Positions 8,625 through 19,231 of a stretch of DNA of 64,000 nucleotides are shown one piece after another. Each line of letters starts with the position of its first letter. The stretch's first letter is position 1. Under the pieces are notes generated by a model. The model was not told the origin of the DNA. It saw nothing but the letters and a program-made list of their open reading frames with translations, and searched no databases. A program made the position numbers and the translations under genes. This DNA comes from Medicago truncatula (Eukaryota; Streptophyta; Magnoliopsida; Fabales; Fabaceae): positions 42,590,755-42,654,754 of the forward strand of contig NC_053048.1 in the NCBI RefSeq assembly GCF_003473485.1, given 5' to 3'.

Positions 8625-8937
8625 GGCTTAATTGCACTTTTGGACCCCTATCTTTTCAAAGTTGCGGTTATGGACCCCTAACTAATTTAAATACAAAACA
8701 ATCCCCTATGTTTTTGATTATTTGCAAGTTTTGCACCCCCAAGGCAAAAAAAAAATAAAATTGACACGTGGCACCTCACTTAGGGTGCCACGTCAGCGTT
8801 GACCGAGTCAACAATGGACTGGGGGGTCCAAAACTGCTAAAGAATCAAAACATAGGGGGCTGTTTTGTATTTAAATTAGTTAGGGGTCCATAACCGCAAC
8901 TTTTGAAAAGATAGGGGTCCAAAAGTGCAATTAAACC
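8625..8937. mobile_element. Mutator-like MITE with 9-bp target duplication
   Basis: The 313-bp unit has long terminal inverted repeats of about 120 bp. Both ends read inward as a GG(C/T)TTAATTGCACTTTTGG type sequence followed by GACCCCTATCTTTTC. It is flanked by perfect 9-bp direct repeats AAAATAAAA at 8616-8624 and 8938-8946. Nine-base duplications and long inverted ends are typical of Mutator-like elements. The centre contains the palindromic words CACGTGGCACC and GGTGCCACGTC. It has no coding capacity. Confidence 0.85.
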
Positions 8938-9987: not shown

Positions 9988-12900
9988 ATGGAGGACGAAG
10001 TCGAACACAGACCCCTTCATCAAACTACTCTACCCAAACAAATTGAACAACACAACGATTCAGAACCTGAAAACGAAGATGACGACGATGTCTCTTCCTT
10101 TTCTTCAGATTCCGAAATCGACGACGCATTAGACTGGTTAGATTCAAAAAACGAAGATTATTACGATTCAATCGACGGTACTTCTCTTAGTTCATGGCGC
10201 CCCAATGCTCACGGTGGTCACCACTCTCATTCTTCAACACTTCAACCTCTCTCCAATCGTAACCAGAAATTCTCACATCATATTCGTGCTTCTCCGTTAG
10301 AGGAATGGGAAGGAAGGATGAATATTGCTATGTCGAATACTGTTACTACCGCGATTCGTGGAAGTGTTCGAGAGATGGCTATTGGTAAAACTAAAACTAC
10401 TGAGAAAGCTGACCGTGCTACTGTTGAGCAGGTAAACTAGAATTACTCATAGTTTGATAGCTGATAAGGTAGCTGATTGTATTTGTAGTGTTTTGTAAAA
10501 TTAGTGGATGGGCTGGTTTATAAGGGCCTGTTTGGATTGGCTTATTCTTAAGCTTATGCAAATAAATAACCTTTTATGCTCTGTTGGATGTGTGGTAAGG
10601 TTAGATATGATAGGATTAGAAATGAAAATATTAGAGAGAGAGAGAGAAAGAGAAAGATTTGGGGTAGGACATATAGTTGAAAAAATGGTGGAAAATAGGC
10701 TTAGGTGGTTTGGGCATGTAGAGAGAAGACTTGTACATTTTGTAGTAAGGAGAGTAGATCTGATGAAGGGTAGTTATATCATTAGAGACCAAGGAGGAAG
10801 ACCTAGAAAAACTATAACAGAAATTATTAAGAATAATCTAGATATTGAGTTGAATCGAAATATTGTTTATGATAGAACATTATGGCGTAATTTTATACAT
10901 TGAGCTGACCCCATCAGTGGGATAAGACTTGGTTGTTGTTATTGTTGTTGGAAATGATGAAATCTGGTACATTCAAAAGCTGCACATTTCAATAAAATCT
11001 TTCTGATTTTTATTTCATAGTGGAGCACTGGTTTCCTTGTTCGTTGTATTCATTTTCAATATTTTGCATGCAACTAACAATAAAACTCTCCTAGGCAATT
11101 GATCCCAGAACGCGCATGGTTTTATTCAAGATGCTCAATAGAGGTGTGTTTCAAGATATGAATGGATGCATTTCAACTGGAAAGGAAGTATGTCATACAC
11201 CAGAACCTTTATTTACATGTTTGTTTCAGTTTTTTTTTTTAATTTTTGGCTTAAGGTTTTATGATGGGGATAATTGATTTTATATGTTATCATATTGATG
11301 ATTGTTACTCTCTTTTAATTTTCTAACAGGCAAATGTTTATCATGCCACCAAATCCATTATTTCAACTGAGAAGGAAGTATGTCAGACACCAGAACCTTT
11401 TATTTACATATTTGTTTCAGTTTTTATTTTATTTTTTGGTTTTATCTTTGGATTACGGTTTTATGGTGATAATTGATTTTATATGTTATCATATTTATGA
11501 TTGTTACCCCCTTTTTAATTTTCTAACAGGCAAATATTTCTCATGCCATCAAAACCAATGGTGAAGAACTTGAAATTCAAGAACTTGCAATTAAAATATA
11601 CAAAACATCTGTTCTGGTATTTAAGTAAGTACTATTAAGTGTTAGTTTGTTCTAACTTCTGTTATTACAAGTTATCTTGTTGAACATAAATTATTAAAAA
11701 GAATTACATACACAGGCTACTGTAATCTTTTAATTCATGGACTGACTTTTATAATGTGATTGATATCAGGGATAGAGATAGATATGTGCAAGGAGATTAC
11801 CGGTTTAGAAATGGGTACTGCAGGCATAATCCCCGAAAAATGGTTAAAACATGGGCAGAAAAGGAATTCAGGAATCTTAAGAGGTTTGCATTTGCTCTTA
11901 TTTCATACCTTTTTGTTTCTTCTTTTGGATATAATTTTCTATTCTTCTGTTGGATATGCACTTAGCTAAAAGCTGTTAAGATAATACTGTTGTATAATGT
12001 GATATACTAAATTACACTTTCAATCAAAATAATTCAAGAAGAAGAATTGAAGAAATAAGGAAATGACATATGCCATCCACAATTTTTTTTCCAACTGTAT
12101 TATATTTTTCTGTTGTTAAATGGGCTCCTTTATGTATCATCCCTGAGCGCACTTAGCTTGTTCTTTCATATATTTCCCATATAAAAAAAGTTTGATTACT
12201 TTTTTTGCCAAATTGCAGGCTAAAGGAAGAAGGAATCAGGTGCCCTACACCAATCCTTCTGAGGTTACATATCCTGGTTATGGAATTTATTGGTACTGCT
12301 TTTATCCTGCATTTTGATACAATCTGATTCTCCAATTATAATCAATTTCTCTCAATTCTGTTTGTTATATTGAATACCAGTGTAAATATGTCTACATTTG
12401 ATTGTAAAAGAAAGATGGGAAGTAAATTAAAGTAATGTATGGTTCAATATTGATCAAATGCATTATCAGTCCTAGAAAATTCCAATTTCTCGCTGTAGCT
12501 TATATAATCTCATTCTGGTAACGCCCTACTGCAGTTTAGACAGAAGAAATGCAAGTAGGTTTTTAACTGAAGTTCTCTGGTTATTTTGGTGCATGCAGGA
12601 AAGGATGGCTGGGCCGCTCCACGTCTCAAAGACGCAGATTTATCTTTAGACAAGTTACGGGAGGGTTATGTTGAGGTATGTGATAGTGATACAATAGTCG
12701 TCTAGTAAAGTTAGCATGGTTTAGAAGTTAGAATTTAGTCCTTTAGCAGGTTTCTTTGGTATTATGTTGTTGGGATGCTCTAATATAAGGTTTGGCACTC
12801 AGAAGCTTTATACCTAGAATTATTGCTAAGCTAGAGTTGTCAAATAGCGATTATAGTGGCGGCGCTATCTCAAAGCGGAATTTTAACAAATTGCCATTGT

Positions 12901-15900
12901 TCTGTGGTACACTATTTAGTAAAAAATCTTGTTAAACAGCGGATATAGTTGTGCTGTAACCATAGTAGTTAATAGCGGATAGCGGCGTGTAGCGACCGAC
13001 CCCAAAAATGCTATAGCGGGATAGCGCAGAGCGCTATGACCGCTATTTCATAGAGAGCATAATAGAGTTTTATATCAACAAAACAGAGGATTGTTTGTAC
13101 AAACTACAAACAGAAACAGAGAGAGAGAGCAGAATGGAGTTTGGAATCAATAATAACAAATAAAACTAGAATAAAAAAGTAACAGGACAGTAGAGTTTGA
13201 GATTGTTAAACAAAAAAATAACAGGATAACAAAGCAAACACGACAAAGTAGAGGAAGATTTACGGTGTAGAGGTGAAGAAGTTTTACAGAACAGCAGAAA
13301 AGCAGAGAGAAGATGCTTTTTGCAGATAAACGCCGTTTTGCGCAAGAAAGAAAGAAGGAAGAGAGAAGCTGAACTTTTTAGGGTTTAATGAAAATGTCAA
13401 AAATACCCTTGTTTTTTTTTAAAACCAAGGACAATTTTGTATTTTCTCTTAAAGTGAAATAGCAGTTCTAAACCACAAAATCGCTACGAAGCGTTGCGCT
13501 GCTATCTCATACCGCAACGCTATGGCTTGTTGCGTAGTGCGCCAGCACCGCACCGCGCGGCCGCTATAGCGCCGCTATTGACTACTAGCCTGTAACACTG
13601 TAGCATAGAGGAATATGAAGGATCACTATTTTCTGCCGTCTGTGATTGACAACACTGCCAAAAGGTCACTTGTGTGATTAAAGCTATTTAGAAGTCTACA
13701 CTATCATTCAAGGATTCTCCATGGAAACACTTCTCACATTTCTTTTACCTTTCTAAATTCTAAAGGTTTATTCTGTTATGCTAATTTTTTAGGCTGACTT
13801 TATGAGCATTTGTATTTTAGATAATTGTTGCAATGCGGACATTATATCAGAAGTGCAAATTGGTGCATGGTGACCTCAGTGAATATAATATACTCTATTA
13901 TGAGGTGAATACTCCTTTGGATGTTTATATTTTAAAGACAGAGTGTCTCTCTATAAATTGTTTACTTATTTGTTCTTTATTTCTCAGGGTCACTTGTATA
14001 TTATTGATGTTTCTCAAGCGGTTGATCCTGACCATCCTCATGCTCTTGATTTTCTGCGTGAAGACTGTATTCATGTATCCGTAAGTACTCCTAGGCACTA
14101 GCTGTAAATTACATATCTCTTGTCCTCTTCCTCATGTGTTGTAGGGCTAATAAGAAAAAAGAATGTGATTAAGTACTTGTTTTACTTGTAGGATTTCTTT
14201 AAAAAACATGGTGTAGGTGTCATGACAATAAGAGAACTTTTTGAATTTATTGTTGATGCATCGATTTCTGATGATGCTGTAGATGGCTATTTGGAAAAGG
14301 TATTTGTCATTGGTATGTCATTGTTTTCATTCTCGGAACAACTTCAAACATATTATTATAATATTAAAAAAAATTCAGGTGCAACAAAAAATTTTGGCCA
14401 GAGGAGATGTATCTGCAGAGGATGAGATTGCAGACTCAGTATTTGCACAGGTAACTTGCCTTACAAGATTGCTTTTTGTTTGAATGTGAAGGGAAATGCA
14501 AGAAAATTAAGGAAACACTGAAGAAATTAATTTAGGAAGTATATCTATAGATATTTGTATTGTTGTCGCGAAGATCTAAACACGGAAAGTTTATTTATAC
14601 TTCTAGAAGCTTTTAGAAGGTATACTAAAAAAAATGCTTTAAGCAGAAAGGTATAGCAAACTATGGAGATCAAGTCCCTCAGGTTACAGGAACTAGAACA
14701 GTTACTGGTTGCCATACAGGAAACACAACAATTAATTCACACTGATGCAAGATTGTAACTTGAGGATCGCATCATGGATCATAAGATCCTACCATAGGGA
14801 AAAGTTATATGTATGTGCATAATAAGTTCATAGATAACTCAAAAGACAGAGTTCATAACCATGATTATAGAAGTAAAGTTCATAAATAACCATAGAAGGA
14901 GGAGTCGCAGGTTGCGGCTCAAACTGATGGAAGAATAAGGACGGGAGGGAACAAAGGTTGAGTGAGAGAGAACAGAGGTCGCCAGTGCTGTGGATTGTTG
15001 AATGGCTGACCTAATAAGTTTTTGTTTTTCAAAAACCAGGCCATTTCAGGAAAACCCGACCCTGATATCAAAACAATCCCATTTTTGCATCTTTCCGTCC
15101 TCTTCAATCCCATTTTTGCGTCTTTCCGCCCTCTTCAATCCCACAGGCATGCTGGAAAGATTGTGATTTTACCCAGTGAATTCCGTTTGTAACACAGCAC
15201 AGAGTATAATCCCAAATCATGATTGAGAATATTGACGCCTTGAGTATAAGCATAACAACTATTGTAACACTTCTATGTGCTAACGTAACAACTGATTCTT
15301 CTAAATCTAAGCATTCTCATTTTAATATGATATTGCTGCAATCGTTTATTATTAATATATATGAGATAAAATCATAAAAACATAGAATTCATACTTCATT
15401 TAACCCTCCAAGTTCATTATTTCTTTCTAAAACAGTATGAGTTTGATTTTGATAATTTTTTCAATGTATTTTGAACAACTAAAAGCACTAGTCATATTGG
15501 TGTATTTAGCACATTTATTTTGTTCTCTCCATTCTGACATGTTTATTTTCTTGAACTCTTTACAGTCTTACATTCCAAAGACACTAGTCGATGTTAAGAA
15601 TGTTGAGGAGGATGTACAACGTATAACGAGTGGCAAAGAAACCGGGGATTTGATTTATCAGACGATTACTGGACTTAAACACGCTCTCACAATAACAGAA
15701 CCTTCCCTGCAAAATGATCAGTTAAAGCCGAAATCAAATACTATAGATGATTCACATGCCATCTCTGATGGTAAATCTAACCTCTTAGAAGGTGATGCGG
15801 AGGCTCAACCTGGTGAGAACGAAGAAGATAACAAAAGCGATTCTGAAGAGATTTCATCCTCTGAAAGTGATTCTGATACTCCGCTTGATAAGAAAGTTGC

Positions 15901-16030
15901 TAGAAAAGAAGCTAGGAAAGAAAATAAAAAGAAGGTGAAAGAGGAGAAAAGAGAAGCCAGAAAAACTAAACTCCCCAAGGCTGTGAAGAAAAGAAAGAAG
16001 AAATTGTCTAAGGCCATAAAGACCAGATAG
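9988..16030 (+). CDS. RIO1: RIO1 atypical protein kinase/ATPase
   Basis: RIO1 kinases act in the last cytoplasmic steps of pre-40S ribosome maturation. Exons: 9988-10431, 11095-11187, optional 11330-11377, 11530-11624, 11770-11883, 12219-12292, 12599-12675, 13821-13904, 13988-14080, 14192-14299, 14379-14450, 15566-16030. All junctions are GT-AG and in phase, giving 588 residues with the optional exon or 572 without. Seen in the translation: an acidic N-terminus, P-loop STGKEAN at 175-181, the ATP-binding lysine in LAIK near 217, catalytic HGDLSEYN at 331-338, metal-binding IIDVSQ at 349-353, and a Lys-rich tail after about 535. The start is the ATG of MEDEVEH, because the frame upstream lacks an earlier ATG. 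Oddities are the duplicated P-loop exon and a 15-bp duplication before LAIK. Introns hold a LINE relic and a hAT-like element. The family call is near certain; inclusion of the mini-exon is unknown. Confidence 0.93.
10588..10950 (+). mobile_element. 5'-truncated L1-type LINE relic in RIO1 intron 1
   Basis: Translation of this segment gives the C-terminal end of plant LINE ORF2, with the motifs [18 protein letters not shown] and GRPRKT followed by LWRNFIH and a stop. It is out of frame with its own start because of an expanded GAGAGA run near 10630. The 3' end reads GACCCCATCAGTGGGATAAG and then a TTG-repeat tail at about 10931-10950, the usual end of this LINE family. It lies wholly within an intron and is not expected to affect the protein. 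Confidence 0.85.
11170..11559 (+). repeat. Tandem duplication across the RIO1 P-loop exon junction
   Basis: Copy 1 (about 11170-11359) and copy 2 (about 11360-11559) are clearly homologous. Both contain the exon end with ...AAGGAA, a GTATGTCA donor, a T-rich intron, the TTCTAACAG acceptor and the following GCAAAT exon start. The duplication creates a new 48-bp exon (11330-11377) with functional-looking splice sites on both sides. Length 48 is a multiple of three, so including or skipping it preserves the frame. Confidence 0.9.
12961..13588. mobile_element. hAT-like non-autonomous element in RIO1 intron 6
   Basis: The 628-bp unit begins CATAGTAGTTAATAGCGG and ends CCGCTATTGACTACTAG, which are near-perfect inverted ends. 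Flanking octamers GCTGTAAC (12953-12960) and CCTGTAAC (13589-13596) agree at seven of eight bases, fitting a hAT target duplication. Both ends are rich in palindromic GCTATAGC/GCGCTA words. The middle is purine-rich and encodes no transposase. It accounts for over half of the long intron between RIO1 exons ending at 12675 and starting at 13821. Confidence 0.75.
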
Positions 16031-18994: not shown

Positions 18995-19231
18995 ATGGCA
19001 TATGAAGTCAATAACAAGCAAGTGATGCCGAACAATGGTGACTTGCCCGAACTTGTCATAAGGGAAATTCTTGTGTATCTTCCTATAAAGTCTCTATTTA
19101 GGTTCAAAAGTGTCTCCAAACAATGGAATAATTTGATTTCAGATCCTTTTTTTGCTCGTTGCTATAGTTGTCGGTGTGATCACCCTCACAAGGCAACCTT
19201 ATGGGCCATGCACTACAATGATAATAAGTGA
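18995..19231 (+). CDS. F-box-only short protein (truncated F-box gene)
   Basis: The 78-codon ORF begins at the ATG of MAYEVNNK. From about residue 17 it contains an F-box: LPELVIREILVYLPIKSLFRF, then a KSVSKQWNNLISDPFFAR end. F-boxes bind SKP1 and link a substrate receptor to an SCF ubiquitin ligase. The usual plant partner region (F-box-associated or Kelch, a further 250 residues) is absent: the frame stops at 19229-19231 and the following DNA shows no continuation in any frame. It is either a 3'-truncated relic or a very short F-box protein. The F-box itself has no internal damage. It belongs to a different F-box subfamily from the FBD cluster near 38 kb. Confidence 0.6.
   Translation: MAYEVNNKQVMPNNGDLPELVIREILVYLPIKSLFRFKSVSKQWNNLISDPFFARCYSCRCDHPHKATLWAMHYNDNK

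What the first reader, a model, noticed from the sequence alone, without database searches (positions are those of the whole stretch)
11095..11624. Duplicated P-loop mini-exon in RIO1 with in-frame optional inclusion
Seen: a tandem duplication of about 190-200 bp copied the exon end, the intron and the next exon start around the ATP-binding loop. The new 48-bp exon (11330-11377) has a proper acceptor and donor. Skipping it gives STGKE joined to ANISH; including it gives a canonical STGKEANVYH followed by a second loop STEKEANISH in which the glycine is Glu. Known: the STGKEANVY loop is strongly conserved in RIO1 and contacts the nucleotide. Inference: the locus may make two kinase forms with different nucleotide binding. 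The skipped form replaces VYH by ISH, so the form with a fully canonical loop needs the extra exon. Such in-frame loop duplication in a single-copy essential gene is unusual.
Basis: partly seen in the sequence, partly recalled or inferred. Interest (0 to 1): 0.75.

Follow-up and report, generated by a model that had tools for sequence, protein, structure and literature searches.

The report
Duplicated ATP-loop exon in plant RIO1
A plant gene for the ribosome-building kinase RIO1 carries an old, in-frame duplication of its ATP-binding loop; the evidence favours the extra exon being routinely included, adding a spare loop, over a switch between two kinase forms, but no RNA data were available to prove it.

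Summary
A tandem duplication (spacing 190-200 bp; three of four matched blocks 90-93% alike, one 72%) made a 48-bp, phase 0-0 exon at 11330-11377 with good splice sites. Both transcripts stay open: 588 aa with the exon, 572 without. The gene is not single-copy: two more RIO1-type loci lie on the same contig, one with an undisrupted canonical loop. The canonical loop (exon 2 + new exon) has 0 replacements and 3 silent differences from paralog L010; the second loop has 5 of 15 codons replaced, not significantly fewer than its intron predicts. Most likely the extra exon is included as a rule: the canonical loop binds nucleotide, and the second, decayed loop becomes a long beta2-beta3 turn (29 residues; 8 in human RIO1, 19 in RIO3). 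Regulated skipping is possible but unsupported. Caveat: the intron copies show a similar asymmetry (8 of 10 resolved changes on the second copy), so coding asymmetry alone proves little. Paralog L010 separately duplicated its whole P-loop exon. This is a new example of known internal exon duplication. RNA reads would settle it.

The parts
9988..16030 (+). RIO1-type kinase gene, coding part from ATG to stop; 12 coding exons counting the extra one
   Evidence: splice-consistent open gene model; PF01163 242.8 bits, cut-off 22; best solved relative human RIO1 4otp, 340 bits
11095..11187 (+). exon 2 (93 bp, phase 0-0), ends in the P-loop half GCISTGKE
11188..11329 (+). intron copy A (142 bp)
   Evidence: GT-AG; 11 of 139 aligned sites differ from copy B
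11330..11377 (+). extra exon X (48 bp, phase 0-0): ANVYHATKS (copy of exon 3 start) fused to IISTEKE (copy of exon 2 end)
   Evidence: donor 8.4 and acceptor 7.3 bits within the range of the training introns
11378..11529 (+). intron copy B (152 bp)
   Evidence: GT-AG
11530..11624 (+). exon 3 (95 bp): decayed loop half [11 protein letters not shown], then beta-3 with the AIK lysine
11564..11593 (+). 15-bp tandem repeat in exon 3 that lengthens the beta2-beta3 turn by 5 residues relative to both paralogs

Best explanation
A tandem duplication inside a RIO1 gene, from the last codons of exon 2 through the intron to the first codons of exon 3, created a 48-bp symmetric exon. The extra exon is most likely included in all or most mature mRNA. 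In that protein the first loop (exon 2 + exon X, STGKEANVYHA) is the working nucleotide loop. The second copy (STEKEANISHA...), together with a 15-bp repeat in exon 3, is tolerated as a long turn between strands beta 2 and beta 3, in front of the catalytic lysine strand. Shown: the duplication, open frames, splice sites, the decay of the second copy, the paralogs, and the position of the insert in alignment to solved RIO kinases. Inferred: constitutive inclusion, a folded active kinase, tolerance of the long turn, and that this is the main RIO1 of the plant.
For: Canonical loop half-pair exon 2+X: 0 replacements and 3 silent differences from paralog L010 in 15 codons (2 silent and one K/D codon against L009, where L010 also has K). 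Replacements at 0 of about 34 sites against intron A 24 of 140, Fisher p=0.005. Second half-pair X+exon 3: 5 of 15 codons replaced relative to the first (G-E, V-I, Y-S, T-I, S-T), no silent change, and not significantly constrained: 5 replaced codons per about 34 sites against 33 of 146 in intron B, p=0.36; 6 of 45 coding against 11 of 139 intron sites between the copies, p=0.37. All 6 of 6 polarised coding changes lie in the second module. Of 12 loop residues, module 1 lost 0 and module 2 lost 3, against 3 of 104 residues shared by human and a paralog in exons 4-9 (p=0.014 for module 2). Identical donors and adequate acceptors. Skipping would give STGKEANISHA. The RIOK-1 P-loop is stated to be identical in yeast, fly, worm and human (PMC4331490, passages seen); its letters STGKEANVY I take from 4otp and 9xai. 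The beta2-beta3 turn naturally varies: 8 residues in 4otp, 12 in 9xai RIO1, 19 in RIO3 8zdb, 11 in 12ez Rio1; here 29 with X, 13 without (counted from alignments). The gene is the most human-like of the three: 340 bits to 4otp against 280 and 284, and it lost 3 human-shared residues where the paralogs lost 21 and 15. [quoted passage not shown]
Against: The intron copies, which should be free of protein constraint, show a similar asymmetry: 8 of 10 resolved changes on copy B in 5 of 6 alignments, 7 of 9 in the sixth. Coding 0:6 is not distinguishable from intron 2:8 (p=0.5). So the asymmetry by itself may reflect the history of the copy, not use. The conserved first module shares its history before the duplication with the second. 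Acceptor X scores 2.2 bits below acceptor 3, and a 48-bp exon is short, which could allow some skipping. The loop of the skipped form (2 of 12 lost) is not significantly worse than the rest of the gene (p=0.08). The loop is not rigid across RIO kinases: 12ez Rio1 reads STGKEANVF and RIO3 8zdb STGKESVVF. No RNA, no other plant genome and no structure model was available.
Confidence: 0.7

Rival explanations
1. Exon X is a true cassette exon: both forms are made in useful amounts, giving two RIO1 kinases with different loops and turns.
For: X is symmetric (48 bp) and both forms are fully open; acceptor X is weaker than acceptor 3 (7.3 against 9.5 bits); exon 2 keeps the shared STGKE half.
Against: The start of exon 3, which would be half of the loop in the skipped form, has 4 of 9 codons replaced relative to exon X and to L010. 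No mark of regulation was looked for beyond splice-site scores. No RNA evidence.
Confidence: 0.17
2. Skipping is the main form: X is a seldom used by-product, and RIO1 works with STGKEANISHA.
For: The skipped form has the shorter turn (13 residues) and a Pfam score equal to the included form (242.6 against 242.8 bits).
Against: It would leave the best preserved RIO1 copy with V-I and Y-S in a loop stated to be identical in yeast, fly, worm and human; X keeps an intact ANVYHATKS and adequate splice sites.
Confidence: 0.07
3. The whole locus is drifting: with three RIO1 copies the window copy is becoming dispensable and the loop duplication is a harmless scar. (Compatible with any splicing reading.)
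For: dN/dS between the three copies is 0.45-0.55 over exons 4-9 (NG86), which I judge high for a core ribosome factor; a sister copy has its own damaged-looking P-loop exon.
Against: The window copy is fully open over 588 codons, closest of the three to human RIO1, and lost 3 of 104 residues shared by human and at least one paralog. The other two carry most of the losses (21 and 15).
Confidence: 0.1
4. Origin by unequal exchange between two already diverged RIO1 copies or alleles, rather than simple tandem duplication: module 1 and module 2 were different before they were joined. (A rival on origin only, compatible with inclusion.)
For: Nearly all changes, intron included, sit on the second copy (2:14 in coding plus intron, two-sided binomial p=0.004).
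Against: The copies are much closer to each other (K 0.084) than to L010 (0.195, 0.269), and no donor with the ISTEKE-ANISHA loop was among the four RIO-domain loci found. A DNA search of the genome for one did not complete.
Confidence: 0.15

Closest known systems
Internal tandem (exon) duplication that creates a new exon; duplicated exon with mandatory inclusion, as in vertebrate COE/EBF (PMC2394523, passages seen)
   Same: Tandem duplication within a gene adds an in-frame repeat of a structural motif; in COE the repeat is present in vertebrate transcripts.
   Different: Here the duplicated unit spans exon end-intron-exon start, so the new exon is a fusion of two exon parts and phase 0-0 at once; the COE authors propose a second step that restored phase. 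Inclusion here is inferred, not shown.
RIO1 kinases (human RIOK1 4otp, Rio1 1zp9, 9xai RIO1)
   Same: RIO domain, P-loop STGKEANVY, catalytic HGDLSEYN and IDVSQ segments.
   Different: A second, decayed loop copy and a 15-bp repeat lengthen the beta2-beta3 turn to 29 residues in the included form (8 in 4otp).
RIO3 kinases (8zdb)
   Same: Also a long segment (19 residues) between beta 2 and beta 3 in the alignment.
   Different: RIO3 is another subfamily and its segment does not read as a loop copy; the window protein scores 340 bits to RIO1 against 252 to RIO3.
Mutually exclusive or cassette duplicated exons
   Same: Tandem copies of a short symmetric exon region.
   Different: The copies cannot be swapped one for one here: exon 3 (95 bp) must be kept to hold frame, so only include/skip of X is possible.

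Membership tests
RIO1 kinase subfamily | RIO domain (PF01163) above cut-off | tested here: met
   242.8 bits (with X) and 242.6 bits (without), cut-off 22
RIO1 kinase subfamily | closest solved relatives are RIO1, not RIO2 or RIO3 | tested here: met
   4otp 340 bits, RIO3 8zdb 252, best RIO2 41
RIO1 kinase subfamily | P-loop STGKEANVY | tested here: met
   present only if exon X is included; without X it reads STGKEANIS; motif letters from 4otp and 9xai, identity across species from PMC4331490 passage
RIO1 kinase subfamily | catalytic and metal-binding segments | tested here: met
   [12 protein letters not shown] and [13 protein letters not shown] align to human LVHADLSEFNML and IIDVSQSVEHDHP
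RIO1 kinase subfamily | ATP binding and pre-40S function | not testable with these tools
   needs protein and genetics
Internal tandem duplication that creates an exon | adjacent homologous copies including splice sites, in frame | tested here: met
Alternative (cassette) exon | both include and skip junctions in RNA | not testable with these tools
   no transcript data held
   further RIO1-type loci at C7:3.83 Mb and C7:35.63 Mb; the C4 locus is RIO2

The most novel reading that the evidence does not exclude
The locus makes two RIO1 kinases by regulated inclusion of exon X: one with a canonical loop and a 29-residue turn, one with a divergent STGKEANIS loop. Ribosome maturation would thus be tuned by splicing of a nucleotide-binding loop, in a RIO1 family whose P-loop exon has been duplicated independently at least twice.
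Probability: 0.12. Interest if true: 0.7.

Novelty: new member of a known kind. Interest (0 to 1): 0.36.

Why it matters
The RIO1 nucleotide loop is reported identical from yeast to human (PMC4331490 passage), and here the best preserved of three RIO1 copies carries a second, decaying loop just before the catalytic lysine strand. It is a compact natural test of how much a RIO kinase N-lobe tolerates, and of how a new exon born from a duplication across an intron is handled by splicing. That two of three RIO1 copies of one genome duplicated their P-loop exon separately makes the locus useful for studying recurrent exon duplication. If the exon were regulated, it would link splicing to ribosome assembly.

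Tried and rejected
First exon model had exon 2 and later exons off by a base and read with stops; replaced by the splice-and-frame search. An alternative exon 5/6 junction (12297/12604) is also open and changes K to T after FIG; the K form matches human RIO1 and was kept. The 'exon 3 skipped' form was considered: exon 3 is 95 bp, so leaving it out breaks the frame.

Assembly error: rejected, because the copies differ at 11 of 139 intron sites plus 4 gaps and at 6 of 45 coding sites. The idea that coding asymmetry alone proves inclusion was tested against the introns and weakened. A three-way count of odd residues without an outgroup did not single out the window gene (9, 20, 8 in exons 4-9); with the human protein as outgroup it did (3, 21, 15 lost).

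Literature: searches 'RIO1 + kinase + Medicago truncatula' (5 papers listed, none looked relevant from the listing), 'RIO kinase + Arabidopsis + plant + RIO1' (9), 'RIO1 + crystal structure + P-loop + atypical kinase' (10), 'tandem exon duplication + plant + alternative splicing' (22, 12 listed), 'RIO1 + Medtr7g' (0), 'internal gene duplication + intron + exon duplication' (4), 'RIO1 + exon duplication' (0). Passages of three papers were seen: PMC2394523, PMC4894443 (nothing used from it) and PMC4331490. No paper was read whole.

Dating: K 0.084 between intron copies would be several million years at usual plant rates (rate recalled, not from a call).

Full report
What is there. The stretch 11095-11624 is exactly the start of exon 2 to the end of exon 3 of a RIO1-type kinase gene on the + strand (9988-16030). 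A splice-and-frame search gives 12 coding exons with the extra exon and 11 without; both read open, 588 and 572 residues. Repeat analysis shows the exon 2 end, the intron and the exon 3 start twice, spaced 190-200 bp, 90-93% alike in three of the four matched blocks and 72% in the T-rich fourth; Tandem Repeats Finder did not list it. The new exon X (11330-11377, 48 bp, phase 0-0) is ANVYHATKS (copy of the exon 3 start) fused to IISTEKE (copy of the exon 2 end). Intron copies A and B differ at 11 of 139 aligned sites, with 4 gaps.

Where it lies. The window is contig C7, 42590755-42654754, of a 429.9-Mb genome in 42 contigs. That size and contig number match what I recall for Medicago truncatula A17 r5.0; the name is recalled, not given by a tool. 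A search of that genome with PF01163 (23 candidates scored, 12 matches, exon by exon) found four loci: the window gene, C7:3.83 Mb (L009), C7:35.63 Mb (L010) and C4:46.29 Mb. An exon of the C4 locus matches only RIO2 chains in the PDB (8 of 8 hits). So there are at least three RIO1-type loci, and 'single-copy' is wrong. L009 has the canonical STGKEANVYHA loop without duplication. My gene models of L009 and L010 are open over the kinase exons but each needed one frameshift in the C-terminal tail; whether that is damage or a poor model is open.

Which copy is the main one. Kinase-domain scores to human RIO1 4otp are 340 bits for the window gene, 280 for L009 and 284 for L010 (the window query was the included form, the L010 query used exon copy 2b). 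Over exons 4-9, identity to human is 113, 95 and 101 of 183. Where the copies differ and at least one keeps the human residue, the window gene lost 3, L009 21 and L010 15. The window gene is thus the best preserved, which makes the loop duplication in it more notable. Pairwise dN/dS over exons 4-9 is 0.45-0.55 and dS 0.23-0.33.

How it most likely works. In the included form the first loop is exon 2 + X, fully canonical, and the second copy becomes an insert between strands beta 2 and beta 3. In the alignment to solved RIO kinases this is where gaps fall, and the turn is naturally variable: 8 residues in human RIO1, 12 in 9xai RIO1, 11 in 12ez Rio1, 19 in RIO3; here 29 with X and 13 without. 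The first module has 0 replacements and 3 silent differences from L010 in 15 codons, fewer replacements than its intron predicts (0 of about 34 sites against 24 of 140, p=0.005). Against L009 it has 2 silent differences and one K/D codon, where L010 also has K. The second module has 5 codons replaced and no silent change relative to the first, and no significant constraint (5 replaced codons per about 34 sites against 33 of 146 intron sites, p=0.36). It has lost the loop glycine, valine and tyrosine; 3 of 12 loop residues lost compares with 3 of 104 in exons 4-9 (p=0.014). The skipped form would have V-I and Y-S in a loop reported identical in yeast, fly, worm and human RIOK-1 (PMC4331490, passages; letters). 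The tyrosine is F in 12ez Rio1 and in RIO3, so that position is aromatic rather than fixed. I therefore hold routine inclusion to be most likely (0.7).

Result against this. All 6 polarised coding changes are on module 2, but the introns, which no protein constrains, show 8 of 10 resolved changes on copy B in 5 of 6 alignments and 7 of 9 in the sixth. Coding and intron asymmetry do not differ (p=0.5). So the asymmetry may belong to the history of the copy, for example an exchange between diverged copies, and only the contrast with each module's own intron bears on use. That contrast for module 1 includes the time before the duplication. Acceptor X is weaker than acceptor 3 (7.3 against 9.5 bits, a small matrix from 23 introns). 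The skipped loop, 2 of 12 lost, is not significantly worse than the rest of the gene (p=0.08). Inclusion is an inference until RNA is read.

Age. The two intron copies differ by K 0.084, against 0.195 and 0.269 to the L010 intron, so the duplication is younger than the split of the paralogs.

A second, independent case. L010 carries two tandem copies of the whole exon 2: 2a ends ...NGCILTRKE (93 bp), 2b ...NGCISTGKE (90 bp). The breakpoints differ from those in the window: after about 130 bp the intron behind 2a turns into a copy of the sequence that precedes exon 2 (by eye). There too one copy kept the canonical loop end and the other lost it. Acceptors there score low (1.3 and -0.5, below the 3.0-16.2 range of the 23 training introns), so L010 may be decaying.

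Known or new. Internal tandem duplication that makes exons is well known; inclusion of a duplicated exon is documented for COE (PMC2394523, passages). The text searches made found no paper holding both 'RIO1' and 'exon duplication' (0) or 'RIO1' and 'Medtr7g' (0); this covers only the held open-access library. I file it as a new member of a known kind, of moderate interest.

Noticed in passing
L010 (G000:C7:35632000-35641999), minus strand, 5261-5169 (2a) and 4970-4881 (2b): The paralog has its own tandem duplication of the whole P-loop exon 2: copy 2a ends LTRKE, copy 2b ends STGKE; both phase 0-0 and open. Independent of the window's duplication by its breakpoints.
   Followed up: partly
window 9988-10431; L009 and L010 exon 1 region: Both paralogs appear to have an intron between SPLE and the following EWEGR/DLEGR codons where the window gene has an uninterrupted exon 1 (L009; L010: by eye): an intron loss or gain between recent paralogs.
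   Followed up: no
window 10562-10903 (intron 1): Open frame ending ...[11 protein letters not shown]...[35 protein letters not shown], which I recall as the end of plant LINE reverse transcriptases; no Pfam match at E<=0.001.
   Followed up: partly
window about 8630-8935: By eye, a long inverted repeat (one arm near 8645-8705, the other near 8855-8930), as in a MITE-like element.
   Followed up: no
window about 12840-13590 (intron 6): Stretch rich in variants of tagcggc/gccgcta inside the 1.1-kb intron 6, seen by eye; looks like a small mobile element.
   Followed up: no
window 18995-19231: F-box domain frame (PF00646, 43.2 bits) that meets a stop after 83 residues of the frame scanned; looks like a truncated F-box gene.
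   Followed up: no
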